Part shown: piece after piece, positions 1-20,901 of the stretch
How the letters are laid out: every line of letters starts with the position of its first letter
Position numbering within the stretch: position 1 is the first letter of the stretch
Source of the DNA: Allomuricauda sp.
GTDB taxonomy: Bacteria; Bacteroidota; Bacteroidia; Flavobacteriales; Flavobacteriaceae
Direction of reading: 5' to 3'
Assembly: GCF_002699205.1 (NCBI RefSeq)
Contig: NZ_PABT01000009.1
Location: forward strand, 1-64,000
DNA length: 64,000 nt
Notes under the pieces: generated by a model
Databases searched by the model: none
What the model was told of the DNA's origin: nothing
The model's input: the letters and a program-made list of their open reading frames with translations, nothing else
Position numbers and translations under genes: made by a program

Positions 1-110
1 GTTTAACCCACGGATAGATCAAATCTGGGCAGTCCATTTGCCATGGTCAGTTTCATCCGGCGAAGGTGGGTCACTTTACTCGGCTTATCCAGCAAGGTAG
101 ATCCCACCTT
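1..110 (+). repeat. IS21-family-like terminal repeat region (partial, at window edge)
   Basis: The stretch carries tandem imperfect units of the form TGGTCAGTTTCATCCGGCG followed by GGTGGGTCACTTTACTCGGC and then TTATCC. This repeated alternation of a GGTGGTCA-type block and a CCGGCG-type block is typical of the ends of IS21-family elements in Bacteroidetes. A related unit occurs in inverted orientation at about 19066-19098, and similar same-orientation units lie at 19174-19208 and 35652-35686. No istA or istB is visible, so the rest of the element would lie left of the window or has been lost. Family assignment is inference from end structure. Confidence 0.55.
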
Positions 111-2342
111 TTAAACCTGTTAACTATAACAATTAAGGATACTTATTTATGTCCTCAAGATTTTGTCTGGGATGAGGATGGGTTCAATGAGATTGAGGCA
201 ATTTTTGAAACAGGTAACAAAGGTACCCATAGAAGCTTCTTGATACTCATGCTTAGGAGCAAAGTATTAAGGAATGATTCTAAATCCTATTTCAGTATTG
301 AGGCCAAAGTACTTAATAAAACAGACGATTCAATTTATGAATCGATTCTATTGAGCGCCTTCAATTTAGATTTCAAAACCCTGAGGAATAAGTTGGATGC
401 TTGGAACCCAAATTCAAGTTGGGTTATGAAAAAGGCGGGACTTTTGGCATTGTTTGATAACCGGGAAGCAATAGGATATCTATCCAAAAACATGGAAAAT
501 CCTGGTTATTCAAGTCAAGAAGAACTTTATATGCTCGAAATGTTGAGTTATTTGAAACAAAGTGTTGAGCATAGATATGACAGGGTTTTGAGTGAGGCCA
601 TTAGTGGCTATAAAAATATGGGATTGGATTCTGTTTCTGAAAACATTGATAACCTTATTGACGATGCGAACAAAGGCAGTGGCAAGATTGAAAGATATGG
701 AGAGGGTAGGTTTAGAATCTCCAATGGGTTTTCATTTAGCAATGATTTCACCAAACCACAGAAAGGCCTGCAATTTCTCCAACAAATGATAGAAACTGGA
801 TTTCCGATTTCAGTCATAAACATTAACTGGAAAAATCCGACCAAGTGCTATCCCTTGTTCAGAACGATATTTGAGTATTTCCCTTTCCCTACTGCTTTTT
901 ATGCATTACAATTTTCGAATGAGAAATTTTTAAGAAGGTTGGGGCAGGATTTTGCCTATTCCGATAATCTGAAATTGAATTTGGATAAAATTCTAGCTAC
1001 AGTTCTAAACTCCTATTTGGAGGACAGCACACCAAATGGAATTAAACAAAATATATTATACTTCGCCTCGGAACTATTCATTGCCGTAGATCCAAAAACT
1101 TGGCAAGACAATTTTCTTAAGATCTGGAACATTGCATCATTCAAGGAGAGATGCCTCGATGACCGATGGTTTGCAGAACGCACATTTACGATTTCATGCA
1201 TTAAATTTATCCAAAATCCGAAAATATTAACCGAATTCCTCCATACTTTACTTATCAATCCTATCTCGGATTATTCAGTTTATCTCACATTCTATCTGGC
1301 CAAGAATCCGATTATTAAAAAACTGGGGGAAACCCTCCAATCAAATGAGGTGGCACAGGCTGTAGACACCTTAATAAATTCAATGCATCAAAATGAGTCA
1401 GCGGTATTCATGACAGGGAATCTTTATGACATTCTCACAGATTCACAAAAAGCGAATATTCGAAAAAATATTCAAAAACTTGATTTTGAGAAAATCGAAA
1501 ATTTAAGGTTATGGAGAGTTTTAATCTACTTTTCAACTGATGACAATGACACCCGTTATAAAATTAAAACTGCTATAATTAAGAACAAAAAATTGTTCAA
1601 TGCCGGTTTCACTAAAAACAGCCTTAGAATGGGTGCGGATTTTATCGAAATTTCAAAATTCACAAACACAAAAGCCCCTGAATATATTTCTTGGTCAACA
1701 ACCGAAGCCAAAGAAATATTTAAAAGATTGTTATCGGAACTAAAAAAGATTGATGGTTATTCAGGTAAAAGTGGACATGATTTTATCTCGATCCTTTCTG
1801 AAATGCAGACATTTCTGAATAGGGAGCAATCAAAAATCAAGGATGTAAAGGAATATAATATGGCGCGTGAAAAAGTCGATAGCCTTTACATCCAAAGTAG
1901 GGGTTATGAATCTCTCAGTGATGGCATAATTTCAACCGAAAATACAGATGTGGTTTGGGCATTAAGTGAATTATCTAGTTTGATGTATCAAAAAAATTCT
2001 ATTCAAGGACTGGAACTGGAAATAAGTTCATTGTTGAATAAGGTTTTGCTTCAATCCGAACCGTCTCTTGAGGCATGCTTGAACTACTTTGCCAGCTGGT
2101 TAAATGATGAACAGCTTTCAAATGGATTTAAAAAATATGATGAAATCATTCTGAAAATCTTAAAACGATACTCCGACAATGAATTGCAGGAATTTGATAA
2201 GCCTTTTGTTTATGAGCAACTTGTGGGAATCGCCAATACATTATCCAATTGGGGAATGATAGATGATTCCATTGAACATTGGAAAACAATAGAGAAACAG
2301 ACTTCTTATAATAATATACGATTCAAGGAGGAAGCTAAATAA
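66..2342 (+). CDS. Large protein of unknown function, 5' end disrupted by an IS terminus
   Basis: I do not recognise the family. The reading frame opens after a stop at 15-17 and its first GTG (66) lies inside the IS21-like end, so roughly the first 15 residues are IS sequence and the native start has probably been lost; the next in-frame ATG is near 249. The remaining 740 or so residues are mostly predicted alpha-helical, rich in Lys, Asn, Ile and Leu, with no signal peptide, membrane span or obvious catalytic motif. The look is that of a long helical-repeat scaffold or sensor. It is followed after 52 nt by the DUF4268 gene and then by the exonuclease-RecQ-UvrD gene on the same strand, which suggests a shared system. 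It could also be the C-terminal part of a larger effector whose enzymatic N-terminus was cut off. Confidence 0.6.
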   Translation: MGHFTRLIQQGRSHLLNLLTITIKDTYLCPQDFVWDEDGFNEIEAIFETGNKGTHRSFLILMLRSKVLRNDSKSYFSIEAKVLNKTDDSIYESILLSAFNLDFKTLRNKLDAWNPNSSWVMKKAGLLALFDNREAIGYLSKNMENPGYSSQEELYMLEMLSYLKQSVEHRYDRVLSEAISGYKNMGLDSVSENIDNLIDDANKGSGKIERYGEGRFRISNGFSFSNDFTKPQKGLQFLQQMIETGFPISVININWKNPTKCYPLFRTIFEYFPFPTAFYALQFSNEKFLRRLGQDFAYSDNLKLNLDKILATVLNSYLEDSTPNGIKQNILYFASELFIAVDPKTWQDNFLKIWNIASFKERCLDDRWFAERTFTISCIKFIQNPKILTEFLHTLLINPISDYSVYLTFYLAKNPIIKKLGETLQSNEVAQAVDTLINSMHQNESAVFMTGNLYDILTDSQKANIRKNIQKLDFEKIENLRLWRVLIYFSTDDNDTRYKIKTAIIKNKKLFNAGFTKNSLRMGADFIEISKFTNTKAPEYISWSTTEAKEIFKRLLSELKKIDGYSGKSGHDFISILSEMQTFLNREQSKIKDVKEYNMAREKVDSLYIQSRGYESLSDGIISTENTDVVWALSELSSLMYQKNSIQGLELEISSLLNKVLLQSEPSLEACLNYFASWLNDEQLSNGFKKYDEIILKILKRYSDNELQEFDKPFVYEQLVGIANTLSNWGMIDDSIEHWKTIEKQTSYNNIRFKEEAK

Positions 2343-2394
2343 AGCTTAAAGAAGAGAATAAATAAAATTATAACACCACTATAACAAACCAACA

Positions 2395-3519
2395 ATGTTT
2401 TTAATAAATAAGCACAATAATAAAATAGAGAAAATATCCGAAAAGACATTTACAGAATTGGGGTTTAAAGAAAGAGAAAACCTTCAGGAATGGCTTGCTG
2501 ATAATCCTATGGCCCTTGGAGAAGAATTGTTGATAATCCAAAAGGAATTTAGTGGATTCAATGACACAAATGAAAGGCTTGATCTACTTGCTCTTGATAA
2601 ACAAGGAAATCTCGTCATTGTGGAAAACAAACTCGACGATAGTGGAAAAAATGTGACTTGGCAATGTTTGAAATATGCTTCATATTGTTCCAGTTTAAAA
2701 AAGTCCCAAATCATAAAAATATATCAGGAATTCCTAGATAAAACCAATTCTTCAATGAAAGCAGAAGAGTCCATTAGTGATTTTTTGGATGGAATCGAAA
2801 TAGAGGAGATTACTCTTAATTCAGGACTTACCCAGCGGCTTATGTTAGTTTCCGGTTCGTTTAGAAAAGAGGTTACTTCCACAGTTATTTGGCTTCTTAA
2901 TTATGGTATCAGACTTCAATGCTTTCAGGTAACCCCTTATGCCCTTGGTGAACAATTGTTCTTAAATGTCGAGCAAATCATACCTATGAAGGAAGCAGAA
3001 GAGTTTTCCATTAGCATGGCCGAGAAAACACAAGAGGATATAGCATCACAAGAAGAAATAAAAAGCAGGCATGTCATTCGAAAAAAATTCTGGAACGAGG
3101 TCATTAACAAAATGAACGGCAAGTCTGATTTATATCAGAATATTAGTTCTAGTAAATACAATTGGATTGGTGCAGGTTCTGGGGTTCGAGGGGTTGGTTT
3201 CAACTTTTCAGCAACAAAAAACTATGGAAGGGCGGAACTTTATATTGACCGAGGGGATAAAAATGAAAATGAGTTCGTTTTTGACTTTCTTTATAACAAA
3301 AAGGAAGAAATTGAATCTAAATTCGGTGGTAAACTGGAATGGGAAAGATTGGAAGGCAAGCGTGCAAGTAGGATAAAATATGAGGATCGGAATTTCAATA
3401 TTTTTGAACCTGAAACTTGGGAATCAACCATTGAAAATATTACCGATGGAATGGTTCGTATGGAACAAACTTTAAAACCCTATTTAAAAGATATAAACAA
3501 GAAAGTGAAAGCACTCTAA
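2395..3519 (+). CDS. DUF4268 protein with PD-(D/E)XK-like nuclease N-terminus
   Basis: The 374-residue protein has two parts. Residues 1-120 contain ERLDLLALDKQGNLVIVENK, a strand-turn-strand with an Asp and a following E-x-K, the arrangement of NucS/endonuclease-like PD-(D/E)XK folds. The C-terminal half, from about residue 220, has the tryptophan-rich WIGAGSG/ELYIDRGDK pattern of DUF4268, a domain found in accessory and restriction-type contexts. There is no signal peptide, so it should act on cytoplasmic DNA. It is the middle gene of a three-gene cluster, 52 nt after a large helical protein and 31 nt before a multidomain helicase. Nuclease activity is inferred from the motif; substrate and trigger are unknown. 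Confidence 0.75.
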   Translation: MFLINKHNNKIEKISEKTFTELGFKERENLQEWLADNPMALGEELLIIQKEFSGFNDTNERLDLLALDKQGNLVIVENKLDDSGKNVTWQCLKYASYCSSLKKSQIIKIYQEFLDKTNSSMKAEESISDFLDGIEIEEITLNSGLTQRLMLVSGSFRKEVTSTVIWLLNYGIRLQCFQVTPYALGEQLFLNVEQIIPMKEAEEFSISMAEKTQEDIASQEEIKSRHVIRKKFWNEVINKMNGKSDLYQNISSSKYNWIGAGSGVRGVGFNFSATKNYGRAELYIDRGDKNENEFVFDFLYNKKEEIESKFGGKLEWERLEGKRASRIKYEDRNFNIFEPETWESTIENITDGMVRMEQTLKPYLKDINKKVKAL

Positions 3520-3550
3520 GGATAGAATACCTAATGTTTGCTATAAACAT

Positions 3551-6500
3551 ATGAATTCAATTGCATTCGTTGATACAGAAATTGAGCCGAAGAGCCGAAA
3601 GATACTTGATATTGGAAGTGTCAAGGGAGATGGTAGCTCCTTCCATAAAACTTCAATAGCGGATTTCATACAATTTCTCAACGGAACCCAGTACATCTGT
3701 GGGCACAATATTTTCAACCACGATATAAAATATATCGGCAAGTCCCTGAATGATGCCGGGATAGCCCCAACCAATGTCATTGACACCCTTTACCTTTCCC
3801 CTCTTCTTTTTCCGACCAAGCCATACCATAGATTGATCAAGGATGACAAGCTACACCCAGAGGAGCTGAACAATCCCCTGAATGACTCCATCAAAGCAAA
3901 GGATCTGTTCCATGATGAAGTTGCTGCCTTTAAACAAATCGACGAAACCTTTCAACAGATACTTTTTTTATTGTTGGGCCCCCAAAGGGAGTTCCATTCA
4001 TTTTTCCGTTTCATCGGTTATTCGAGCAACCATCCGAACGTAGAAGGCTTGATCCAACATAAGTTTGGAAAGGAAATCTGTGAGGGTGCGGACCTGAAAA
4101 AACTGGTTTTGGACCATCCCATTGAACTGGCCTACGCCCTATCTCTTATAAACTCATTCATCCAACATAAAAAAGTAAGATCAATTACACCTCCTTGGGT
4201 ATTGAAGAACTTTCCGGAAGTTGAACGGATCATGTTTCTTTTAAGGAACAAACCTTGCATTACAGGATGCCCTTATTGCAACAATGCATTGGATATCCAC
4301 AAGGGGCTTAAACAGTTCTTTGGTTTTGATTCGTATAGGACCTACGGAGGTGAACCGCTACAGGAAAAGGCGGTCAAAGCCGCTGTCCATAACAGATCTA
4401 TCCTTGCGGTCTTTCCAACGGGAGGTGGAAAATCCATTACCTTTCAGGTTCCCGCCCTAATGAGCGGCGAAAACTCCAAGGGGCTGACAGTTGTGATTTC
4501 CCCTTTGCAATCCCTGATGAAGGACCAAGTGGACAACCTTGAAAAGAATGGAATTACGGAGGCCGTTTCCATAAATGGGATGCTTGACCCAATCGAAAGG
4601 GCAAAGTCCTTTGAACGGGTTGAGGACGGTTCCGCATCCATTCTTTATATTTCTCCTGAGTCCTTGCGCTCAAAGACCATTGAGCGGTTGATCTTGGGAA
4701 GGAAAATAGTCCGTTTTGTAATTGATGAAGCACATTGCTTTTCATCATGGGGACGGGATTTCAGGGTGGATTACCTGTACATTGGTGATTTCATCAAAAT
4801 GGTACAGGAAAGGAAAAATCTTGTGGATGGCATACCTGTTTCCTGTTTTACGGCCACTGCAAAACAAAAGGTAATTGAGGACATTCGGGATTATTTTCGG
4901 GAAAAGCTTTCACTGGAACTGGAAGTGTTCGCTTCCAGGACATCACGGACCAATCTTCAATACAAGGTCTTTGAAAAGGCCGACGAGGAAGAAAAATACC
5001 AAACGGTGAGGGATTTGATAGAGGCGAAAAACTGTCCGACCATCATCTATGTTTCAAGGACCCGAAAGGCCTATTTGCTTGCAGAACGCTTGACCGAAGA
5101 TGGTTTTAATGCCAGACCTTACCATGGTAAAATGGACATACAGGAAAAAACCTCTAACCAAAATGCCTTCATTTCTGGGGAAGTCCCGATAATGGTCGCC
5201 ACATCGGCCTTCGGTATGGGGGTTGATAAAAAGGATGTTGGCTTGGTGGTCCATTTTGAAATCTCCGACTCTCTGGAAAACTATATCCAAGAGGCCGGAA
5301 GGGCCGGAAGGGACGATAATATTATTGCGGATTGCTACTTACTTTTCAATGAGGAAGACCTGGGCAAGCACTTCATCCTTTTAAACCAGACCAAACTCTC
5401 CATCAAGGAAATCCAACAGGTTTGGAAGGCCATTAAGGAAATTACACGGTTCCGGTCAACAGTATCCAATTCCGCACTTGAAATAGCACGAAAAGCAGGT
5501 TGGGATGACAATGTGATGCAAATTGAGACCAGGGTCATGACTGCCATAGCGGCATTGGAAAATGCAGGGTACCTGAAACGGGGGCAGAATATGCCCAGGG
5601 TTTTTGCCAATAGTATCCTCTCGAAAAATGCCCAGGAAGCCATCGATAAAATCCATATTTCTGACAGATTTGAGGGAAGGCAAAAGGAACAGGGTATCCG
5701 GATTATAAAAAAACTCATTTCAAGCAAAAGCAGAAAACAGTCAAATGAGGAAACCGCCGAGTCAAGGGTCGATTACATAAGTGACCATCTGGGAATTTCC
5801 AGAGACGAAGTAATAAACATTGTGTCCCTACTTCGAGAGGAAAATATCCTGGCGGATGCCAAGGACTTGACCGCTTTCATCAGAAAAGGGGAAAACAAGA
5901 ACCGTCCCCTTAAAACAGTGGACCAGTTCAACAAGTTGGAAACATTTCTACTGCCCTTGATTGGGGAACAGGAAAAAACCTTCCATTTAAAGGAATTGAA
6001 TGAAGAGGCTGAAGAAAATGGATGTATTGATACATCGCCCAGTAGAATCAAGACGATCATCAACTTTTGGGCCATTAAGAACTGGGTGAAACAGAAGAAC
6101 CTGCCCTACTCCAAGAACCATGTCGCAATGCTTTCCCTCCATCCTAAAGACGAATTACAGGATAAATTGGATAGGCGTCATGAATTGGCAAGGTTCTTTA
6201 TTGGGTTTCTCTATGAAAAAACGAATTTGAAAACATCCACTTTAGAGACTGGAAAAGAAGAGGTATTGGTTGAATTCTCCGTCCATGAACTGAAAGATGC
6301 TTTTGAAAGTTCCATTTCAAGTTTTGGGAAGAAAGTATCCATTGTAGAGGTGGAAGATGCCCTTTTTTACCTATCCAGAATTGGTGCGCTAAAAATTGAG
6401 GGGGGCTTCCTTGTTGTCTACAACCGACTGACCATTGAAAGAGTCGAACAGGACAACTATAAGCGATATACAAAAGACGATTACCAGCAGCTCAACGAGT

Positions 6501-8365
6501 TTTACGAAAACAAGATACAACAGATCCACATAGTTGGGGAATATGCCAAGAAAATGATAGTCGATTATAGGGATGCCCTTCAATTTGTCGAGGATTATTT
6601 CCAATTGAACTACAGCTCATTTCTAAAGAGGTATTTTCCGGGCAGTAAGGTTGACGAACTCAAGCTGAAAATGACCCCTGGAAAATTCAGGCAGCTTTTC
6701 GGGGAACTGTCCCCTACCCAATTGAAAATCATAAAGGACAATGAAACGCAATATATGGTCGTGGCCGCTGGCCCCGGTAGTGGAAAAACCAAGGTTTTGG
6801 TACATAAACTGGCATCCCTGCTCCTAATGGAGGATGTAAGGCATGAACAATTGCTCATGGTCACTTTTTCGAGAGCAGCCGCGACGGAATTCAAAAAGAG
6901 GCTGCAAAAACTAATTGGCGGCTCTACCCATTACATAGATATAAAGACTTTCCATTCCTACTGCTTTGACCTGTTGGGAAAAATAGGGAATCTTGAAAAG
7001 TCCAGTGAAATATTGAAAAAGGCCATTGAGAAAATCAATAACAACGAAGTAGAGCCCAGTCGGATTACCAAGACCGTTCTGGTAATCGACGAGGCCCAGG
7101 ACATGGATGAGGACGAGTTCAATCTGGTCAAGGCATTGATGGAACGGAACGAGGACTTGCGGGTGATTGCGGTTGGGGATGACGACCAGAATATTTATGA
7201 GTTCAGGGGGGCAAGTGCAAAGTACCTTGAAGAGTTCATACAGGTGAACAGGGCCATCAAGCATGAGCTTATCGAAAACTTCAGGAGCAAAAGCAATTTG
7301 GTCGATTTTACCAACCAGTTCTTAAAATTGATCCGCCACCGATTGAAAAGCGCCCCGATCATTGCAAGACAGACCGATAATGGAAATATAAAAGTGGTCC
7401 ACTACCAGGGCGGAAACCTCATTACACCTCTTGTAAATGATGTTCTTGACACTGGACTTAAGGGTACCACCTGTGTGCTTACCAAAACCAATGACGAGGC
7501 ATTGCAGATTACCGGACTGCTTTTAAAAAACGGAATGCAGTCAAAGTTGATCCAGTCGAATGATGGTTTCAGTTTACATGACCTAGTGGAGATAAGGTTC
7601 TTCCTAAACCATTTGGATTTGGGGGATGATGTGTTTGTCATCACGGATGATAAATGGGAAAGTGCCAAACGGAATCTCAACGACAAATTCCGAAACAGTA
7701 CAAAACTGGACATCTGCAATAACATTATAGGGGATTTTGAGGCAATCAATCCAAAAAAGAAGTACAAATCCGACCTGGAGGTTTTCATCAATGAATCCAA
7801 GCTGGAGGATTTCTACAATGAGAATGGGGAGACTATTTTCGTTTCGACCATCCACAAGGCCAAGGGCAGGGAATTTGACAATGTATTTTTGATGCTTGAT
7901 GGTTTCAAGCTTAATACTGAAGAAAAAAAGCGCCAACTCTACGTTGCAATGACCAGGGCCAAACAAAATCTCAACATCCATCTTAATGGAAATTACCTTG
8001 ACCATAACAGTGCCGATAATTTGGTAAGATTGGAAGACAGGGACATTCATGTACCACCGAAAGAAATGGCAATGCACTTAACATACAGCGATGTATGGCT
8101 TGATTACTTTATAACCAGGCAGCAATTGGTTTCCCAATTGACTAGTGGTGATGAATTGGTTTTCAATGGGGATGGATGCCTGAATTCGGAAGGGCAATCC
8201 GTTTTGAAGTTCTCACAACAGTTTATTAGGCAGATACAGCTAATGGAAGAGCGGGGCTATAAGCCCAAAAGCGTTAAAGTGAACTTTATCGTTTATTGGC
8301 TTAAATCGGAATCGCAGAAAGAGTTCAGGATTGTAATCCCAGAAGTATATTTTGAAAAGGAATAG
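3551..8365 (+). CDS. DEDD exonuclease / RecQ helicase / UvrD helicase triple fusion
   Basis: This 1604-residue protein joins three DNA-processing modules. Residues 1-120 look like a DnaQ/RNase T 3'-5' exonuclease (DxE in FVDTEIEP, then HNIFNHD and a later Asp). A small Cys cluster (CITGCPYC, about 235) follows. The RecQ module has a Q-motif-like segment, Walker A TGGGKS (about 293), DEAH (about 391), TATA and the YIQEAGRAGRD motif VI. A winged-helix-like linker leads to a UvrD/Rep module with AAGPGSGKT (about 1075), VIDEAQD, GDDDQNIYEFRGA, TIHKAKG and LYVAMTRAKQ. All core helicase motifs are intact, so both motors are likely active. RecQ proteins are usually 500-700 residues and rarely carry a second SF1 motor. 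It sits at the end of a co-directional cluster and converges on the mob operon. Function is inferred as DNA unwinding and degradation, possibly in defence. Confidence 0.88.
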   Translation: MNSIAFVDTEIEPKSRKILDIGSVKGDGSSFHKTSIADFIQFLNGTQYICGHNIFNHDIKYIGKSLNDAGIAPTNVIDTLYLSPLLFPTKPYHRLIKDDKLHPEELNNPLNDSIKAKDLFHDEVAAFKQIDETFQQILFLLLGPQREFHSFFRFIGYSSNHPNVEGLIQHKFGKEICEGADLKKLVLDHPIELAYALSLINSFIQHKKVRSITPPWVLKNFPEVERIMFLLRNKPCITGCPYCNNALDIHKGLKQFFGFDSYRTYGGEPLQEKAVKAAVHNRSILAVFPTGGGKSITFQVPALMSGENSKGLTVVISPLQSLMKDQVDNLEKNGITEAVSINGMLDPIERAKSFERVEDGSASILYISPESLRSKTIERLILGRKIVRFVIDEAHCFSSWGRDFRVDYLYIGDFIKMVQERKNLVDGIPVSCFTATAKQKVIEDIRDYFREKLSLELEVFASRTSRTNLQYKVFEKADEEEKYQTVRDLIEAKNCPTIIYVSRTRKAYLLAERLTEDGFNARPYHGKMDIQEKTSNQNAFISGEVPIMVATSAFGMGVDKKDVGLVVHFEISDSLENYIQEAGRAGRDDNIIADCYLLFNEEDLGKHFILLNQTKLSIKEIQQVWKAIKEITRFRSTVSNSALEIARKAGWDDNVMQIETRVMTAIAALENAGYLKRGQNMPRVFANSILSKNAQEAIDKIHISDRFEGRQKEQGIRIIKKLISSKSRKQSNEETAESRVDYISDHLGISRDEVINIVSLLREENILADAKDLTAFIRKGENKNRPLKTVDQFNKLETFLLPLIGEQEKTFHLKELNEEAEENGCIDTSPSRIKTIINFWAIKNWVKQKNLPYSKNHVAMLSLHPKDELQDKLDRRHELARFFIGFLYEKTNLKTSTLETGKEEVLVEFSVHELKDAFESSISSFGKKVSIVEVEDALFYLSRIGALKIEGGFLVVYNRLTIERVEQDNYKRYTKDDYQQLNEFYENKIQQIHIVGEYAKKMIVDYRDALQFVEDYFQLNYSSFLKRYFPGSKVDELKLKMTPGKFRQLFGELSPTQLKIIKDNETQYMVVAAGPGSGKTKVLVHKLASLLLMEDVRHEQLLMVTFSRAAATEFKKRLQKLIGGSTHYIDIKTFHSYCFDLLGKIGNLEKSSEILKKAIEKINNNEVEPSRITKTVLVIDEAQDMDEDEFNLVKALMERNEDLRVIAVGDDDQNIYEFRGASAKYLEEFIQVNRAIKHELIENFRSKSNLVDFTNQFLKLIRHRLKSAPIIARQTDNGNIKVVHYQGGNLITPLVNDVLDTGLKGTTCVLTKTNDEALQITGLLLKNGMQSKLIQSNDGFSLHDLVEIRFFLNHLDLGDDVFVITDDKWESAKRNLNDKFRNSTKLDICNNIIGDFEAINPKKKYKSDLEVFINESKLEDFYNENGETIFVSTIHKAKGREFDNVFLMLDGFKLNTEEKKRQLYVAMTRAKQNLNIHLNGNYLDHNSADNLVRLEDRDIHVPPKEMAMHLTYSDVWLDYFITRQQLVSQLTSGDELVFNGDGCLNSEGQSVLKFSQQFIRQIQLMEERGYKPKSVKVNFIVYWLKSESQKEFRIVIPEVYFEKE

Positions 8366-8479: not shown

Positions 8480-10066
8480 CTATTTGAAGAGGGTGCCAAT
8501 ATCATGATGCACTTTTAGATAATGCTGCTCCAATTCCAATTCTGAAATTCCCAAAGGCTTGGGCAATCCCCTTTCAATTGTTGGTTTCTGAAACTGCGCC
8601 TTCCTATCCTTGCCATCAGCAAACACCACAAACTCCCCCTGCTTCAACCGAAAAAATACCTCGGCCCTACGTTTGGAAACTTCCTTCTCCCCTTCGGTAA
8701 TCCGTCGTTCCAGGTTCAACCCTGAGCTCTTGCTCACACTACGAGTGGGAATCTTTACCAACTCAAAAAAACGTTCATAGTATCTTGCCGTATCAGGGTC
8801 GTTCACCTTTCCAAAGAACTGATAGGATAGATTTGATAGTATCGCCTTGCTCGCCTTCTCCCCGTACATCATATCATTTTGGATCTTGTCCTGCAACACA
8901 TACACACTCACAATGTCATAACTCCTTAGGGTGGCTGGTATTCGGTGCATATTCAACAACCGTAAGGTTGAGGCCTCTTCCAACAACATAAAGGAAGGTT
9001 TCCTATTTCGTTGGCTCATCTGTTTTGAAATCGTATGGATGATAGTGGCGATCACCGGGGAAAGGGATGCATCCTTTTGGGGGTTATTCACTAAGGCAAT
9101 TACGGAAGGGTGATCTTCATTATTGATGTCTAAAGAAATCTCATCTGCGGAAAGCACCATAAAAATCTTTCGCGTACTGATCTTTTTAAACCCATTGGCC
9201 AAGGTACTGAGCACCCCTGCTGTCTGTCGTTCCGACCCAATGCCACTGATAAAGGCATCCGCCATGGCCCGCGAAGTGATGTTCCCTTTTAAAAATTTGA
9301 TAAGGCTCTTGGTGGCCAATTGCTGAAAAACGGCCATCAGATGGGGCAAGGTACAATAGTGTGGATAATCGGTCTTTAATCGCCAAATCAATCCACTGAC
9401 CAGGCCCTCAGCTGCATCCTTAAAGAAGCGGGAAGTACTGTTCTCATCCGAGTCCCGGTGTTCCATCAAGTTCTCCAAGAGCACCCGGGATACCTCATGC
9501 ACACTTTCCTCATCAGGCAGGTATCTAGGAGCGATGGGATTGACCCGATTATAGATGGGACCAAAGGAAACAATCTTAAAGGGTATCTGTTCCCCCTCCC
9601 ATAAGGGGCAGGCCATTTCAGTGATCTCAAAATCCTTGTAATCGTGGATGACCCCTGAGAAATGCTCCTTTTGAAAATGCTTTAAGAAATTGTAGATGAC
9701 ACTCTCCGTCTTTCCGCTCCCTGCAGAGGCCATCACCGACACTCCGCGCCGAATGTTACCCAACACCAAGGGCCTCCCCTTTACCTTCATTTTCACCTCA
9801 AAGACCTTGGAGGGTTTCTTATTGTCTTTGTAGTGGTCCACCAAACCATAGATTACCACATGGGCAAAAAACAGGGGCAGCCAAAGGGCCAATGACCCCT
9901 TAATAAAATCATCCCATCCCCAAAGTAAACCATTGGCCAGGGCCAAAAGAACAATTCCCAAAAACCATATCACAAACCCATATTTTAGAAAGCGATTCAC
10001 TACAAATGAAACCCCTCCTCCAATCAACAAACCTGAAACTATTCCAATCCATCCTAAACCTACCAT
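8480..10066 (-). CDS. Type IV coupling protein (TraG/TraD-like, MobC-type)
   Basis: The 528-residue protein has N-terminal membrane spans (about residues 5-75) followed by a VirD4/TraG-type ATPase. Walker A is ASAGSGKTES near residue 115 and Walker B is FMLLEEAS near residue 360, and a conserved VSVYVLQDKIQ segment follows. Coupling proteins sit at the inner membrane, bind the relaxase-DNA complex and feed it into the type IV secretion channel. It is the last gene of an operon BfmA, DUF5712 relaxase, coupling protein, starting 11 nt after the relaxase gene. The length is shorter than typical TraG proteins (about 650) but matches mobilisation-module versions in Bacteroidetes. Assignment is firm; the exact symbol is not, so none is given. 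Confidence 0.9.
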   Translation of the reverse strand: MVGLGWIGIVSGLLIGGGVSFVVNRFLKYGFVIWFLGIVLLALANGLLWGWDDFIKGSLALWLPLFFAHVVIYGLVDHYKDNKKPSKVFEVKMKVKGRPLVLGNIRRGVSVMASAGSGKTESVIYNFLKHFQKEHFSGVIHDYKDFEITEMACPLWEGEQIPFKIVSFGPIYNRVNPIAPRYLPDEESVHEVSRVLLENLMEHRDSDENSTSRFFKDAAEGLVSGLIWRLKTDYPHYCTLPHLMAVFQQLATKSLIKFLKGNITSRAMADAFISGIGSERQTAGVLSTLANGFKKISTRKIFMVLSADEISLDINNEDHPSVIALVNNPQKDASLSPVIATIIHTISKQMSQRNRKPSFMLLEEASTLRLLNMHRIPATLRSYDIVSVYVLQDKIQNDMMYGEKASKAILSNLSYQFFGKVNDPDTARYYERFFELVKIPTRSVSKSSGLNLERRITEGEKEVSKRRAEVFFRLKQGEFVVFADGKDRKAQFQKPTIERGLPKPLGISELELEQHYLKVHHDIGTLFK

Positions 10067-10077
10067 ATCTGCTTTGT

Positions 10078-11097
10078 TTAAATTCCAATTGATCCTGATT
10101 CCATCGCCTTTCCGATACCTTTTTTGAGTTGCATCATCGCTTTATAGGCCAACTGAGCTTGGTTCGTGGGGATACTTGGCACTTTGATACCCGCCTTGAA
10201 CAACAATTGTTTGGCGGCCTGTTTCTCATTGGAGGGCAAACCCAATAGGGCCGCAAAGAACTGTTTGGGATCCTTGTCGAGAAGGTTTCGGGCCTGGTAG
10301 GTCTCCACAAAGTTCCTGCGGTAGCTGAACTGTTTGTCAAAGCTCTTTTCAGCTGCCCGGTAGAATCTATCCCGATCAAACCCCTGTTTGACCTTCTCCC
10401 CATTAAGGATGGTCTCCGAGGTGCGGAACTTGGAACCTGGGGAGAGGCTATGGGAATTGGTAATATCCTTTCGGCTCACGATGATATGGATATGGCTCTG
10501 GTGGCCTTCCTTGGCCATGCCTGGAACGATACGTTTCCCATGCTGTTTATGGGGTGCCTCCATTTCCAAGGCATTAATTTTTTCATGAAGCTTGGCTATG
10601 TCCCCTTGCTCCCGTCTCTCTTTGATGGCCCTGATCTGATGTTGCAGTTCCAAAATCTTAGTGGCATAAGCTTGGTTCTCCTTGACCTTTTTGTCCTTTT
10701 CGGAATAGGTCCGTTCCCTTTCCAGTTTCGCGAAATACAATACCTCATTGACCGTAACCTCTTTGTCCCTATAAAAAGAAGCCGCATAGGTCTTCATCAG
10801 TTCCCGGGTGTACTGTTTCAGTTTTTCGGGCTCATTTCCGATATGCTTGAGCTCGGCTTGGGAGGGGCTGACCATGATGGAATAGAACTTGGGATCCCGT
10901 TTCGAAAGTTTGGCCGTATTGCCATCGATTTCGGCAATGACCCTCTGGGCATCGATGGCATTTTCCGTTTGGTTGAAAAAAAGCTCTTGTTCTTCGGGGG
11001 CCTTACCTTCGTTCTCCTTTTCCAAATATTTGACAAAATCACTAGCACTGCCGTGATAGTTATCTCCCAAGTGTTGTCTTGTGATGGCGATGTACAT
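10078..11097 (-). CDS. mobB: MobB-like relaxase / mobilisation protein, DUF5712 family
   Basis: The 339-residue protein begins MYIAITRQ and carries the family block PFYSIMVSPS-like (here PKFYSIMVSPSQAEL), a long charged helical insert (about 110-190) and then GHQSHIHIIVSRKD near residue 210. The H-x-H in that last block is the metal-binding signature of HUH-type relaxases, and FVETYQARN follows. It is expected to nick oriT and stay covalently attached to the transferred strand. It starts 2 nt after the BfmA gene and is followed by the coupling protein, the usual order of Bacteroidetes mob modules. The nucleophilic tyrosine is not assigned with confidence, as several Tyr residues are candidates. 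Confidence 0.88.
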   Translation of the reverse strand: MYIAITRQHLGDNYHGSASDFVKYLEKENEGKAPEEQELFFNQTENAIDAQRVIAEIDGNTAKLSKRDPKFYSIMVSPSQAELKHIGNEPEKLKQYTRELMKTYAASFYRDKEVTVNEVLYFAKLERERTYSEKDKKVKENQAYATKILELQHQIRAIKERREQGDIAKLHEKINALEMEAPHKQHGKRIVPGMAKEGHQSHIHIIVSRKDITNSHSLSPGSKFRTSETILNGEKVKQGFDRDRFYRAAEKSFDKQFSYRRNFVETYQARNLLDKDPKQFFAALLGLPSNEKQAAKQLLFKAGIKVPSIPTNQAQLAYKAMMQLKKGIGKAMESGSIGI

Positions 11098-11099
11098 GC

Positions 11100-11687
11100 T
11101 TATAGATTTTTGAGTTTAGTGCGGTATTGTTCAATGGCCCCTGGTTTGAGGTCCAGTTTGAGGTGGTCCTTTCCAAAGCGGTTCTTGGTCACGGACACAT
11201 GATCCAGGACATGGCCAAAATCAGCTTTCAATTCTTCGAGCTGTTCCTTCAAGCGCTCATGTACGATTTTGGGGACCGTGGTCTCCTTGTCCAAGAGTTC
11301 AGGATTGGTGGGCGTGTTGATTTCGGTCAACTGCTTTTCAAAAAATTCAAAGTCCCCTTCCCATTCCTCCCCCTCCTCGGGTTCCAGTTCCTGTTGAAAG
11401 AGGGCCTGCATCATACTGACGGTGGGCAGGGTCTGTTCCTTTTCGATGCTTCGCATAATGGCCACCATGGCATTGAAGCGTCGCTTTATGAACAATTTCA
11501 TACTTGCGATGGTCTCCCCAAAATGTTGGTCCGGGGAGATCCCATGTCGCTCAAAAAACTCCATCATGGCCAACAGGGTCATGGATTGGGATTTGCCAAA
11601 TAACTTGGAAAACCGTCTAAATTTCAGCGCCACCGAGATTTTGATCCTCAGTCCCGCAAACGTCTCTTTTTCGTATCCTTTATCCAT
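11100..11687 (-). CDS. bfmA: BfmA/BtgA-family mobilisation protein
   Basis: The 195-residue protein matches BfmA/BtgA accessory mobilisation proteins: a short basic N-terminus, then FAGLRIKISVALKFRRFSK and SQSMTLLAMMEFFERHGISP, which resemble a ribbon-helix-helix DNA-binding fold, and an acidic linker with a coiled C-terminus. Such proteins bind next to oriT and help the relaxase. It is the first gene of the mob operon. Its ATG at 11685-11687 lies within an 18-nt sequence (11684-11701) that is repeated exactly 42 nt upstream (11726-11743), so its start region, or a binding site embedded in it, is duplicated. Confidence 0.85.
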   Translation of the reverse strand: MDKGYEKETFAGLRIKISVALKFRRFSKLFGKSQSMTLLAMMEFFERHGISPDQHFGETIASMKLFIKRRFNAMVAIMRSIEKEQTLPTVSMMQALFQQELEPEEGEEWEGDFEFFEKQLTEINTPTNPELLDKETTVPKIVHERLKEQLEELKADFGHVLDHVSVTKNRFGKDHLKLDLKPGAIEQYRTKLKNL

Positions 11688-11880
11688 TTTTTCAACAAAA
11701 ATTCCTTGGTTTTACTGGGCCCGGCCCATTTTTTCAACAAAAACCAAAAGCTCAAAATTTTATAAAATACCCCAAACCCCTATAAACAGGGCCTTGCGGA
11801 GCAATCCTAATCGGTAGCGCTGCGCCAGCACGCTATCCTCTTGCTTCTCCGATTTGTCCCGAAGGGACAAAATCGTATCG
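11684..11880. other. Candidate origin of transfer (oriT) region
   Basis: This noncoding stretch lies directly upstream of the bfmA-mobB-coupling protein operon, the usual oriT position in Bacteroidetes. It holds an exact 18-nt direct repeat, CCATTTTTTCAACAAAAA, at 11684-11701 and 11726-11743; a GC-rich palindrome TGGGCCCGGCCCA between the copies; and a strong hairpin at 11850-11875 with arms TTTGTCCC and GGGACAAA around GAA. A weaker hairpin around GGTAGCG and CGCTATCC lies just before it. Function is inferred from position and structure; no nick site can be named. Confidence 0.45.
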
Positions 11881-12046
11881 CTCAACATGGGTCAAGACCC
11901 AGTTGCCTAATCTGTAAAAGTCAAATCGATGGGTACGGAACAAGGAAAGTCAAACCGATCTACCAAAGCAGATCAAAATAATTCCGCACCTAAAATGCTG
12001 TTGAAAACCAACCCTTTAAAGATAGAAAAACCAAGGTTCAGGACAT

Positions 12047-12075
12047 AAAAAAAGCCCATCATAATGGATGGGCTT
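12047..12075 (-). terminator. Rho-independent terminator
   Basis: A 9-bp hairpin with arms AAGCCCATC (12052-12060) and GATGGGCTT (12067-12075) is followed on the minus strand by a run of T (A-run 12047-12053 on the plus strand). It lies 20 nt beyond the stop of the small gene ending at 12095 and probably ends the ssb/radC/small-gene transcript. Confidence 0.8.
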
Positions 12076-12094
12076 CGATGGTGTGTTTTGGGTT

Positions 12095-12292
12095 TTACAT
12101 ATTGAATACAAAATCATAATTGTATAGATTTCGCATGGCTTCATCTTCCAAGAGGGCATCATAGTCCTTATCATGGATTTCCGCAAATTGGCGCAATTCA
12201 GTCCCGGAACGACTTACCACATCTTCCTTGGATACGGAAAGCAAACGTTCCTGGGTTTCGCTATCGAGGTTGGTAAAATTCAAATAGACCAT
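12095..12292 (-). CDS. Small acidic conserved-looking protein
   Basis: A 65-residue acidic protein beginning MVYLNFTNLDSETQERLL, without signal peptide or membrane span. It is the last gene of the ssb, radC, 42-residue protein, 65-residue protein series on the minus strand and is followed by a clear terminator, which supports it being real. I do not recognise a function; small acidic proteins of this kind are common in integrative elements of Bacteroidetes. Confidence 0.65.
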   Translation of the reverse strand: MVYLNFTNLDSETQERLLSVSKEDVVSRSGTELRQFAEIHDKDYDALLEDEAMRNLYNYDFVFNM

Positions 12293-12318
12293 AATTCAAT
12301 GCTTAAAAATTTCATTGT

Positions 12319-12447
12319 TTATAAATCATAAAGGCTAGGGTCAAAACCATCGGGATAATCCCCAAGATCATGTTGCAGTTCCGACCCTATTTCAAGATCG
12401 GTCATTTCAGGATCCACTTTCATCGGATTTGGATTAAAGAATTCCAT
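12319..12447 (-). CDS. Very small acidic protein (42 residues)
   Basis: A frame starting at ATG 12447 encodes MEFFNPNPMKVDPEMTDLEI and ends DPSLYDL. It overlaps the 3' end of the radC-like gene by 14 nt, which suggests translational coupling. The longer upstream version of the frame lies inside radC and is unlikely. The composition is acidic with many Pro and Asp, and the function is unknown. Support is its place in a tight co-oriented series between radC and the 65-residue gene. Confidence 0.5.
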   Translation of the reverse strand: MEFFNPNPMKVDPEMTDLEIGSELQHDLGDYPDGFDPSLYDL

Positions 12448-12883
12448 TATCAGCAAAACTGTAATACCTACCATCAGGCGCAAGGATGATATGGTCCAAA
12501 ACCTTGACATCAAAAAGCTGGGCGGCTTCTTTGATCTTTTGGGTCAATTGTTTGTCCTGATAACTTGCCTTAAGTTGACCAGAGGGATGGTTATGGGTGA
12601 GGATGATCCCAACCGAAAGGGTCTTTAGGGTAATGGCAAAAAGGATGCGCAGATCCACCATGGTACCCGTGATACCCCCATGGGATAATGGATAGATACC
12701 CTTGACCTTGTTGGACTGGTTGAGCAGCACGATCTTAAAGGTCTCGTGCAGGCCTATGGTCTTGTTGTCCCAATTTTGGAACAATAGATTCGCCACCTCA
12801 TTGGAGTTGGTCACGGAAAGGGATTTCAAGGTACTGAGCTTTTCCCGATAACTGATCTGTATTTCATTGACACGGTGTTCCAT
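12434..12883 (-). CDS. RadC-like JAB-domain protein
   Basis: The protein (about 149 residues from the ATG at 12883) is a RadC/JAB domain. It has the metal-binding motif ILTHNHPSGQL (H-x-H-P-S-G) and a downstream D within SYQDKQLT, then VLDHIILAPDGRYYSFAD. RadC-like JAMM proteins are common on mobile elements and phages; a role in DNA repair or recombination is suspected but not proven. The start at 12883 (MEHRVNEIQISY) is preferred to the upstream ATG at 12943, which would add a Pro/Phe-rich tail overlapping the end of ssb. It lies 60 nt after ssb, probably in the same transcript. Confidence 0.88.
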   Translation of the reverse strand: MEHRVNEIQISYREKLSTLKSLSVTNSNEVANLLFQNWDNKTIGLHETFKIVLLNQSNKVKGIYPLSHGGITGTMVDLRILFAITLKTLSVGIILTHNHPSGQLKASYQDKQLTQKIKEAAQLFDVKVLDHIILAPDGRYYSFADNGIL

Positions 12884-12943
12884 TTCAAATGTATTAAGGA
12901 TGAAAAGAAAGGGATGCCCAAAGGCTGGACACCCCCTATCCAT

Positions 12944-13297
12944 TTACTCGGTGGTATTGTTATCACCACCGCCCAACAGTAAGATCTCACTGGCCACCAC
13001 TTCGGTCACATACTTTTTAGTACCCTCTTTGTCCTCATAGGAGCGGGAGGTCAATTTCCCTTCGATGGCAACCTCCTTGCCCTTGGTCACAAAACCTTCG
13101 ATGATGTCCGCCAGTTTTCCCCATGCGATGATGGTGTGCCATTCGGTATTGGTCACCCGTTCCCCTTCGGAGTTCTTGTAGTGTTCATTGGTGGCCATGG
13201 TGAACCGTGCCACACGCTTGCCTTTGTCAAGGTCTGTGATAGTGGGATCCTGCCCCACGTTTCCGATCAACTGCACTTTGTTTCTCAATGTACTCAT
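12944..13297 (-). CDS. ssb: Single-stranded DNA-binding protein
   Basis: A 117-residue SSB with an OB fold: MSTLRNKVQLIGNVGQDP at the start, then VARFTMATNEHY, TEWHTIIAWGKLADI and GKEVAIEGKLTSRSYEDKEG. It lacks the long acidic tail of host SSB proteins and ends GGGDNNTTE, as in many plasmid and element-encoded copies. The start at 13297 is chosen because similarity begins at MSTLRNK; the longer frame to 13348 adds an unrelated segment. It would coat the transferred strand before second-strand synthesis. Upstream lies a hairpin-rich noncoding region. Confidence 0.92.
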   Translation of the reverse strand: MSTLRNKVQLIGNVGQDPTITDLDKGKRVARFTMATNEHYKNSEGERVTNTEWHTIIAWGKLADIIEGFVTKGKEVAIEGKLTSRSYEDKEGTKKYVTEVVASEILLLGGGDNNTTE

Positions 13298-13439
13298 GAT
13301 AAAAAGTTTTAAAGGTCTGCTGCCTTCCTTTATTGGACAGATCAGCAAACAGGGTTAAAAATTTCCCCTCTATTTTTTTGGTCATTGTTTCCCAAATTTT
13401 AAGGGGCGTTTGTTTGCTTCTTACGTGCGTAGCACAATA

Positions 13440-16202: not shown

Positions 16203-16203
16203 A

Positions 16204-17239: not shown

Positions 17240-18106
17240 TTACTTGGAAGATTCGCTTGGGAAGAAAATTTCAATATTCTTTACTACCTCCGAAATGATT
17301 TCATCGGCTCCTGGGATATAATCCTCGGTAATTTGATGCGCTACACTGGTCCTCCAAGCTCTTTTCACATTTGCAATCTTGGTGTCATCCACTAAATCCG
17401 AAGGATTGGTATAAGGTAGATTTTTATGCTCCATTTTTTTAAGGAAAAGAGGAATAATCCTTTCCCAGTCCTTTTTGGAAAATTTTTGGGTCAGATGGTA
17501 CAGATCATAAAAATCCCGTGGTGCCGTGTATGAACGCTGCTTCAGGGCTCTTAGCTTTTCAGCAATCACCTCGTCAATGACATAACATGGGCATTGTTTT
17601 TCACCTTGCAACCCATCGGAATAAGGATGCATAATGGGCAATATTTCGGGTTCCAAAATGATGACCTCGTCTGTACTCACTTCCAATTTAATTTTGGTCA
17701 TCCAACGATCTGGTGGTGGAGGCTGTTGGTTTTTTGAGTGATTGGCCCCCCAATATTTTATGGATACCTGAAATCCTTTGGGCTCGTCATTAAAGACCAA
17801 TCGGGAAATTTCACCTAAACTGAACAGGATTCCGGTCCGAGCTGTAGTGGTCTTGGCAATACCTTCCAGTTTTTCCTTTTCCAGTACGAAGTCCTTCTCC
17901 CTTGCCGTGAAATCCAGATCTTCTGAAAAACGATAATTCTTGATATAGCATTTACGCAGGCATGTCCCTCCCTTGAAAATAAGGTCATCCTTATAGGTTT
18001 CAAAAAAGACCGATAGAAAATGCCCCAGGACATAGTCCTTGTCCACGGTATCGGGAGGCACCTTCCATTCTTTTGATCGCTCTATGATTTCCTTTTGAAG
18101 AATCAT
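17240..18106 (-). CDS. abiEii: AbiEii toxin, nucleotidyltransferase of a type IV toxin-antitoxin system
   Basis: The 288-residue protein has the AbiEii signature: KDYVLGHFLS near residue 22, GGTCLRKCYIKNYRFSEDLDF (residues 46-66, containing the G-G-T and D-x-D of DNA polymerase beta-like nucleotidyltransferases) and a helical C-terminus with AEKLRALKQRSYTAPRDFYDLY. AbiEii enzymes transfer nucleotides, in some cases to tRNA acceptor stems, and cause abortive infection. It directly follows the antitoxin gene with no gap. All catalytic residues look intact. Confidence 0.92.
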   Translation of the reverse strand: MILQKEIIERSKEWKVPPDTVDKDYVLGHFLSVFFETYKDDLIFKGGTCLRKCYIKNYRFSEDLDFTAREKDFVLEKEKLEGIAKTTTARTGILFSLGEISRLVFNDEPKGFQVSIKYWGANHSKNQQPPPPDRWMTKIKLEVSTDEVIILEPEILPIMHPYSDGLQGEKQCPCYVIDEVIAEKLRALKQRSYTAPRDFYDLYHLTQKFSKKDWERIIPLFLKKMEHKNLPYTNPSDLVDDTKIANVKRAWRTSVAHQITEDYIPGADEIISEVVKNIEIFFPSESSK

Positions 18107-20735: not shown

Positions 20736-20901
20736 GTTAAAATGACTTTGGTTAAACAATAATTGTTCATCGAAAGTCAAATCGTGCCCAAAAGCTCTTT
20801 AAAGATAGTACATTTCAAATAAAAGGTTGTACACCGAATTGCACACCTAATTGCACACCTACTATTTGGTTTCAAATGATATCAAATAAATGCACAAAAC
20901 G

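What the first reader, a model, noticed from the sequence alone, without database searches (positions are those of the whole stretch)
66..8365. Candidate three-gene defence or DNA-processing system around a DEDD-RecQ-UvrD triple fusion
Three co-oriented genes with 52- and 31-nt gaps encode a large helical protein, a DUF4268 protein with a nuclease-like D...ExK motif, and a 1604-residue protein with a DEDD exonuclease, a RecQ helicase and a UvrD helicase, all with intact motifs. Helicase-nuclease combinations in accessory regions next to mob genes are typical of anti-phage systems, yet I do not recognise this set as a described system. The window contains an AbiE pair further on, which supports a defence-island reading.
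Basis: partly seen in the sequence, partly recalled or inferred. Interest (0 to 1): 0.85.

Follow-up and report, generated by a model that had tools for sequence, protein, structure and literature searches.

The report
Lone helicase-nuclease in defence cargo bay
What looked like a three-gene antiviral system is three unrelated defence-type genes parked side by side on a mobile element, one of them broken; the big one, with two DNA-unwinding motors and a DNA-trimming domain, travels between bacteria on its own and is a good candidate for a one-gene defence.

Summary
The three ORFs are real but are not one system. The 758-residue ORF is the 3' part of a ~1,280-residue SIR2 (DSR2-like) gene whose N-terminal half lies at another contig's end, with repeated IS-like sequence at both junctions. 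The DUF4268 protein is PADLOC's candidate PDC-S11. The 1604-residue protein (DnaQ-fold exonuclease, Cys motif, RecQ, UvrD) is its own family: four exonuclease acids and key helicase residues are invariant in 105 sequences, but the usual DEDDh histidine is asparagine. Relatives of genes 1-2 occur at 0 of 80 related loci, and the closest congeneric copy (91%) lacks both. The fusion is patchy (25 of 395 class genomes; 9 of 71 in the genus), occurs on plasmids, matched no phage record, and is mixed across phyla. Restriction genes lie near it in 6 of 23 stretches, 0 of 24 controls. Seven of nine copies in the genus lie within 15 kb of an ICE coupling gene, four in one cargo bay; that bay, probed in six congeners without the fusion, holds Gabija, SIR2-HerA, restriction-modification, PDC-S06 or SspC genes. 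Best reading: a stand-alone helicase-nuclease, probably defence, working like Hna or Nhi; WRN-like repair is the main rival. No phage test exists.

The parts
1..91 (.). End of a repeated IS-like element at the contig edge that interrupts gene 1
   Evidence: Identical at the ends of contigs C37 and C35, 92% at C49 of the same genome; the other junction (L183 1-390) is repeated at C26 (97%) and in part at the end of C34
66..2342 (+). Gene 1: C-terminal part of a broken SIR2_2 (DSR2-like) gene; the coding match to relatives begins at nt 90-99
   Evidence: tblastn of P0002/P0004/P0006/P0008; the N-terminal half on contig C30 matches PF13289 at 9e-13 and PADLOC Dsr2 at 1.9e-37
2395..3519 (+). Gene 2: PDC-S11 candidate; PD-(D/E)XK-like N-terminal part (weak) plus DUF4268
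   Evidence: PADLOC PDC-S11 over 1-372 at 1.6e-158; DUF4268 3.5e-32; NucS_C and PDDEXK_4 below cut-off
3551..8365 (+). Gene 3: DEDD exonuclease - Cys motif - RecQ - linker - UvrD fusion, 1604 aa
   Evidence: stand-alone family
3551..4225 (+). DnaQ-fold exonuclease domain (residues ~1-225); D8, E10, D58, D112 invariant, Asn107 in place of His
4256..4279 (+). C236-x3-C240-x2-C243 zinc-knuckle-like motif (metal binding not tested)
   Evidence: Cys in 103-104 of 105 sequences
4304..5467 (+). RecQ helicase core (residues 252-639)
   Evidence: TIGR00614 271.7 bits, cut-off 219.8; best solved relatives RECQ5, RecQ, RECQ1, BLM, WRN
6704..7990 (+). UvrD-type SF1 helicase (residues 1052-1480)
   Evidence: PF00580 4.7e-33, PF13361 7.3e-20; motifs near-invariant
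8480..13348 (-). ICE mobilisation module: coupling protein, DUF5712 protein, 195-aa gene, RadC-like gene, SSB-like gene (the last named by eye, no domain search)
   Evidence: Pfam; the same genes in congeners
17240..18106 (-). AbiEii toxin-family gene
   Evidence: PF08843 1.2e-32
19494..20780 (-). Tyrosine integrase
   Evidence: PF00589 1.4e-16, PF13102, PF17293
27208..33501 (-). Conjugation genes of the ICE (DUF4138, TraM, TraG among them)

Best explanation
The cluster is cargo of a Bacteroidota integrative conjugative element: three independent defence-type genes that happen to be neighbours. Gene 3 is the one of interest, a self-contained helicase-nuclease that moves as a single gene. Proposed mechanism. 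(1) It loads on 3'-ended single strands, forks or ends exposed while phage or plasmid DNA replicates or recombines (inferred). (2) The RecQ and UvrD modules, both 3'-to-5' motors in their families, unwind or track the DNA (family knowledge, recalled; motifs shown here). (3) The N-terminal DnaQ-fold domain trims the 3' end (fold and the four acids shown; activity inferred; Asn at the usual general-base His position suggests slow or conditional cleavage). (4) The result is loss of invader DNA, or abortive infection if host DNA is attacked (inferred, by analogy with Hna and Nhi). Gene 2 is probably a self-contained, perhaps modification-dependent, nuclease. Gene 1 was a DSR2-like NADase gene and is now broken.
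For: Not a system: relatives of genes 1 and 2 at 0 of 80 related loci (56 of the 80 hold at least 3 kb upstream, from the table); none in 8 of 8 congeneric stretches around gene 3, among them the 91%-identical copy with 9.6 kb held upstream; gene 1 in 1 of 395 class and 1 of 395 order genomes, the own genome each time. Gene 3 as mobile cargo: 25 of 395 class genomes, own included; 9 of 71 genomes of the genus, own included, in distinct identity classes; 24 of 72,556 plasmid records at E <= 1e-100, 5 with one place covering at least 80% of the query, against 0 of 50,697 phage records at E <= 1e-60 and one weak partial match in a pattern scan of viral contigs that reaches close relatives only; Bacteroidota needs at least 5 label changes on a quick tree; one congeneric copy is split by a DDE transposase gene. 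Defence setting: restriction genes within 5 kb in 6 of 23 stretches versus 0 of 24 controls, Fisher p = 0.009; N6_Mtase within 10 kb in 3 of 24 genomes, 0.44 expected (partly the same loci); 7 of 9 copies in the genus within 15 kb of an ICE coupling gene, 0.26 expected; three copies in the same bay as the window's stand beside Gabija, type II MTase plus DUF4297-HerA, or PDC-M49A; that bay without gene 3 holds Gabija, SIR2 and HerA, type I REase, type II MTase, PDC-S06 or SspC genes in the 6 bays probed. Active-site residues invariant in 105 sequences.
Against: No functional data. Guilt by association also fits other ICE cargo, including repair or element-maintenance genes; on the Aliarcobacter plasmid gene 3 sits beside parA/parB, and at two Flavobacterium loci it lies between trxB- and parA-like core genes (genes named by eye). 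Three of the seven ICE-linked copies lie on the other side of the mobilisation module, 4 to 13 kb from the coupling gene, not in the bay. The Asn at the DEDDh His position leaves catalysis open. Six annotated plasmid neighbourhoods show no obvious defence cluster right beside the gene: a NERD protein and a helicase near it on the Nostoc plasmid, Cas6 about 4 kb off on the Thiothrix plasmid, HipA or VapC toxin genes 1 to 8 kb off on three others. 17 of 23 stretches show no restriction hit.
Confidence: 0.66

Rival explanations
1. Gene 3 is a DNA repair or recombination enzyme, a bacterial analogue of WRN (3' exonuclease plus RecQ) with an added UvrD motor, carried as cargo because it helps host or element survive DNA damage or replication stress.
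Against: Patchy and mobile, absent from 62 of 71 genomes of the genus; restriction genes enriched around it; it shares neighbourhoods with established defence genes. The own genome already carries two other RecQ-like loci (38-41% identity).
Confidence: 0.22
2. One reading: the 758-residue protein, the DUF4268 protein and the fusion form one three-gene defence system.
For: Co-oriented genes with 52- and 31-nt gaps may be co-transcribed here; all three are defence-type.
Against: 0 of 80 related loci, 0 of 15 sampled bays (three of these are cut short by contig ends), none in 8 congeneric stretches, no excess co-occurrence in 395 genomes, and gene 1 is interrupted.
Confidence: 0.03
3. Gene 3 serves the mobile element itself: it processes ICE or plasmid DNA during transfer, establishment or replication, or acts against host nucleases or rival elements.
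For: Sits beside coupling, SSB-like and RadC-like genes in ICEs and beside parA/parB on a plasmid.
Against: Most ICEs of the genus lack it: a related coupling gene is present in 54 of 71 genomes but gene 3 in 9; other copies lie between core-looking genes.
Confidence: 0.09

Closest known systems
Hna (single-protein helicase-nuclease defence)
   Same: One protein with ATPase and 3'-5' single-strand exonuclease activity (PMC13381803, abstract read)
   Different: Gene 3 has a DnaQ-fold nuclease and two motors (RecQ and UvrD); that Hna is an SF2 helicase with another nuclease fold is recalled, not tested
Nhi (single-gene nuclease-helicase)
   Same: Single gene, helicase plus nuclease, proposed to respond to phage SSB (PMC12904381, passages)
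   Different: Different domain set (recalled); no family named Nhi among the best 25 of 70 PADLOC families listed for gene 3
Gabija GajB and Dpd DpdF
   Same: GajB shares the UvrD part, DpdF the RecQ part
   Different: Only partial coverage of gene 3; no GajA match in genes 1 and 2; in G405 a real GajA-GajB pair lies 1.6 kb from a gene 3 copy as a separate unit
WRN / RecQ family
   Same: 3'-5' exonuclease domain followed by a RecQ core
   Different: UvrD motor added; Asn at the His position; no RQC or HRDC family among the Pfam matches; that WRN is DEDDy is recalled
DSR2 (defence-associated sirtuin 2)
   Same: The N-terminal half of gene 1 matches PADLOC Dsr2 and SIR2_2; DSR2 is an NADase triggered by phage tail tube protein (PMC11087589, passages)
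   Different: The Dsr2 match covers residues 294-466 of the 557-aa piece only; 14 of 20 listed relatives are 1,255-1,304 aa; gene 1 is interrupted
PDC-S11 / GmrSD-associated DUF4268
   Same: Gene 2 matches PDC-S11 full length; DUF4268 is reported as most often associated with GmrS and GmrD domains of type IV restriction enzymes (PMC4619093, passage)
   Different: No DUF262 or DUF1524 match in gene 2; PDC-S11 is itself only a candidate

Membership tests
RecQ family helicase | Score over the curated recQ_fam cut-off with intact motifs I, II and VI | tested here: met
   TIGR00614 271.7 vs 219.8 bits; GGGK, DEAH and QEAGRAGR near-invariant. The recQ equivalog cut-offs are not reached (310 vs 640; 236.6 vs 1015 bits)
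UvrD-like SF1A helicase | PF00580 and PF13361 over cut-off with intact motifs | tested here: met
   115.5 and 72.1 bits; GPGSGKT and DE(A)QD near-invariant
DEDD exonuclease | Four acidic residues on a DnaQ fold | tested here: met
   D8, E10, D58, D112 in 105 of 105; fold matches. That these four bind metal is by analogy
DEDDh subgroup | His five residues before the last Asp | tested here: not met
   Asn in 101, Ser in 4 of 105
Hna or Nhi systems | Sequence homology to the named proteins | tested here: inconclusive
   Neither name among the best 25 of 70 PADLOC families at E <= 1 for gene 3; the other 45 were not shown and no direct comparison was made
Gabija | GajA-GajB pair | tested here: not met
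   GajB-like region only; genes 1 and 2 and 10 proteins of contig C30 show no GajA match
Dpd system | DpdF over cut-off with other dpd genes | tested here: not met
   NF041063 211.8 vs 550 bits; no other Dpd match in genes 1 and 2
PDC-S11 | Full-length match to a PDC-S11 model | tested here: met
   Residues 1-372 of 374, profile 1-372 of 375, E 1.6e-158
DSR2 | Intact SIR2 NADase plus helical sensor domains | tested here: not met
   SIR2_2 present but the gene is split over two contigs with IS-like repeats at both junctions
Three-gene defence system | Co-occurrence of the three families | tested here: not met
Anti-phage defence gene (gene 3) | Protection against phage | not testable with these tools
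   Only context evidence

The most novel reading that the evidence does not exclude
Gene 3 founds an undescribed single-gene anti-phage or anti-plasmid system: two 3'-5' motors of different superfamilies (RecQ SF2 and UvrD SF1) coupled to a DnaQ-fold exonuclease with an Asn-type active site, spread across several bacterial phyla, on plasmids and in ICE defence bays.
Probability: 0.5. Interest if true: 0.72.

Novelty: new variant of a known kind. Interest (0 to 1): 0.5.

Why it matters
If gene 3 protects cells by itself, it adds a two-motor, WRN-like architecture to the small group of single-gene helicase-nuclease defences and offers a direct test of how a DNA processing machine tells invader from host. 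It also corrects a tempting but wrong operon call: tight spacing and shared orientation inside a cargo bay do not make a system. The ICE bay next to the coupling gene is a practical place to look for further defence genes in this group of Flavobacteriaceae.

Tried and rejected
Three-gene system: rejected (see rivals). Gene 1 as a full helical protein: rejected once relatives proved to be ~1,280-aa SIR2_2 proteins. A simple frameshift at the start of gene 1 (my first idea, note): dropped when the first 91 bases proved to be a repeat at other contig ends. Gene 3 as part of Dpd or Gabija: rejected on coverage and partners. Phage origin of gene 3: no phage record matched at E <= 1e-60, and only a weak partial hit came from a pattern scan of viral contigs that reaches close relatives only. 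Linker 600-1050: model too weak (pLDDT 65.3); Foldseek gave no match at E <= 0.001, only weak winged-helix-like hits, so no claim of an RQC domain. RNA families at gathering score and tRNAs in the window: none. Sequence relative in the PDB for gene 2: none at E <= 0.01. Plasmid search with gene 1: no match at E <= 1e-5. Integrase positions were not used for a count, because that list was cut. Empty-site comparison around Flavobacterium loci could not be run. Literature: searches listed 0, 1, 2, 1 and 7 papers; I opened passages of two (PMC5512222; PMC11981726), and neither passage set describes a RecQ-UvrD fusion; the others were seen as listings only, and the library holds only open-licence PMC papers. 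PADLOC comparison of neighbours (121 families among 139 test proteins against 24 among 133 controls) is only suggestive, because several models hit one protein and the per-protein count is not given; the control hits are mostly generic helicase models.
Full report
What is in the window. The window is bases 1-64000 of contig C40 of its genome, so gene 1 lies at a contig edge. The genus is probably that of Flagellimonas onchidii: the 91%-identical relative P0023, named for that species, lies on a 158,277-base contig, and the congener G423 carries a 91% copy on a contig of the same length.

Gene 1 is a broken SIR2 gene. Of the 20 proteins listed for it, 14 are 1,255-1,304 aa long with PF13289 (SIR2_2); ours is only the C-terminal part. 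Four relatives (P0002, P0004, P0006, P0008) were run against both pieces. With P0002, residues 1-550 match contig C30 (L183 nt 2028 down to 400, 58% identity) and 548-1291 match window nt 99-2330 (56%). The C30 piece hits SIR2_2 at 9e-13, PADLOC Dsr2 at 1.9e-37 and ThsA at 2.8e-19. Window nt 1-91 is found identically at the ends of contigs C37 and C35 and at 92% at C49. The other junction, L183 1-390, is found at 97% on C26 and in part at the end of C34. A 7-base stretch is shared at the two junctions (read by eye). I infer an IS-like element inserted in the gene, with the assembly broken at the repeat; the order C30-C40 is an inference.

Gene 2. PADLOC's PDC-S11 covers residues 1-372 at 1.6e-158; DUF4268 at 3.5e-32, with weak NucS_C and PDDEXK_4 similarity below cut-off in front of it. 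DUF4268 is reported as most often associated with the GmrS and GmrD domains of type IV restriction enzymes (PMC4619093, one passage). A self-contained nuclease is the natural reading, untested.

Gene 3 travels alone. It is a large family: a protein search returned 8,000 proteins at E <= 1e-100, which is the cap, and the 120 listed are all at least 76% identical over the full length. Of 215 relatives found in genome contigs the best 80 were kept (65-79% identity). None of the 80 holds a relative of gene 1 or 2 in the held flanks (phmmer E <= 1e-3 on ORFs of 60 aa or more); 24 of the 80 hold under 3 kb upstream (table), which limits that count. The commonest neighbour cluster within six genes occurs at 6 loci. 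On the six annotated plasmids read (of 24 records with a match) it has different neighbours each time. In 395 class genomes gene 3 occurs in 25 (E <= 1e-200), gene 2 in 18 (E <= 1e-10; in 7 of them the best match covers only the DUF4268 end) and gene 1 in 1, own genome included each time; only the own genome has more than one of them. One shared genome between genes 2 and 3 against 1.1 expected is what independence predicts. Gene 1 was also found only in the own genome among 395 order genomes. In the genus, gene 3 occurs in 9 of 71 genomes, own included: besides the own copy at 91% (one), 63% (three) and 42% (three), and G445 in two pieces at 66 and 61%. Stretches around the eight other copies were fetched: none holds a gene 1, gene 2 or P0002 relative. 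The 91% copy stands alone between an SSB-like gene and conjugation-type genes (named by eye). The quick tree places Planctomycetota, Fibrobacterota, Thermodesulfobacteriota and Lentisphaerota copies among Bacteroidota ones (at least 5 label changes, 14 of 91 rows without label); most of these are MAGs and could be mis-binned, but Desulfospira joergensenii DSM 10085 is a named strain.

Is the neighbourhood defence-like? Restriction clusters seen recurrently beside the 80 loci (HNH_2, HNH_4, HsdR, HsdM, McrB-like AAA, McrC; one or two members of each checked by Pfam) were used as queries against 23 gene-3 stretches (ORFs within 5 kb) and 24 control stretches from other places of mostly the same genomes. 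8 of 186 test proteins in 6 of 23 stretches matched, against 0 of 350 in 0 of 24 (Fisher p 0.009 by stretch and 0.0002 by protein; the protein figure overstates, since three hits share one stretch). One test stretch (L157) duplicates L014 of the reference loci and had no hit. The controls are arbitrary places, several near contig starts. N6_Mtase lies within 10 kb of gene 3 in 3 of 24 genomes (66 matches in all), 0.44 expected, Poisson p 0.01; these are partly the same loci, so the two tests are not independent.

The ICE bay. Downstream of gene 3 are a coupling protein, a DUF5712 protein, RadC-like and SSB-like genes, an integrase and tra genes. Related coupling genes occur in 54 of 71 genomes of the genus. 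Of nine gene 3 copies, own included, seven lie within 15 kb of such a coupling gene (121 nt to 13 kb; two have none on the same contig), 0.26 expected if placed at random in a 4-Mb genome. Four of the seven (own, G405, G424, G397) lie in the bay on the 3' side of the coupling gene; three (G423, G411, G422) lie on its other side. The three bay copies outside the own genome stand beside Gabija (G405), type II MTase and DUF4297-HerA (G424) and PDC-M49A (G397); G411 has a type III REase-like gene (10 proteins picked by eye, 7 with a strong match, 1 weak, 2 none). I then fetched 15 bays beside related coupling genes in genomes without gene 3 (chosen by hand; three are cut to about 5-6 kb by contig ends) and scanned 10 proteins from 6 of them, also chosen by eye: 8 of 10 matched PADLOC at E <= 1e-40, covering all 6 bays: GajA/GajB, PDC-S06, type II MTase, HerA and SIR2, type I REase, SspC. 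Because these were picked by eye they show that the bay can hold defence genes, not how often. None of the 15 bays holds gene 1, 2 or 3 relatives beyond weak similarity of gene 3 to GajB-type helicases in three.

How it most likely works. Shown: fold, motifs, strong constraint over the full length, solitary mobility, defence-rich setting. From family knowledge (recalled): RecQ and UvrD move 3' to 5' and DEDD enzymes digest 3' ends. Inferred: the protein loads on exposed 3' single strands of replicating invader DNA and unwinds and trims them. Hna is the nearest documented analogue, a 3'-5' single-strand exonuclease whose output is governed by partitioning between ATPase and nuclease sites and which a phage SSB dysregulates (PMC13381803, abstract); Nhi is a single-gene nuclease-helicase thought to respond to phage SSB (PMC12904381, passages). 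Works like does not mean is: gene 3 was not shown to be homologous to either as a whole. Repair in the style of WRN or DinG remains the strongest rival.

Verdict. The finding's three-gene system is refuted; its defence-island intuition holds; the fusion is a credible stand-alone candidate whose architecture I did not find described in the searches.

Noticed in passing
L208-L210 and L213-L227 (congeneric ICE neighbourhoods): The place beside the ICE coupling gene is a cargo bay with different defence genes in different congeners (Gabija, SIR2-HerA, RM types I and II, SspC, PDC-S06, PDC-M49A, DUF4297-HerA).
   Followed up: partly
L205 7118-8194, L206 11419-12495, L207 7411-8487, L211 12910-13986: A 359-aa gene without a Pfam or PADLOC match (L205 copy scanned) lies directly upstream of gene 3 in four congeners (the three 63% copies and split G445), with otherwise different flanks in L205/L211, L206 and L207: a possible partner in that subclade.
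   Followed up: partly
L211 6552-12697: In G445 the gene 3 relative is split by a DDE transposase gene and has an in-frame stop, so the gene seems dispensable there.
   Followed up: no
L185 2099-5608 (contig C30): Upstream of the SIR2 gene lie a metallo-beta-lactamase-fold gene (272 aa; weak LmuA and PDC-M48B matches) and three genes of 349, 298 and 189 aa without Pfam match: perhaps another defence unit.
   Followed up: no
L006, L044, L064, L072, L076, L070, L156: An HNH-type protein cluster is the commonest neighbour of gene 3, directly upstream on the same strand in 6 of these 7 loci (HNH_2 confirmed by Pfam for L006 and L044 only).
   Followed up: partly
window 14760-15788 and 16174-16806: An IS110-family transposase and a MerT-HMA mercury-transport gene lie as further cargo in the ICE.
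   Followed up: no
gene 3 residues 88-112: An invariant H93-x-L-x-K motif lies near the atypical Asn107; H93 might take the place of the missing general-base His (speculation; this loop has lower model confidence).
   Followed up: no
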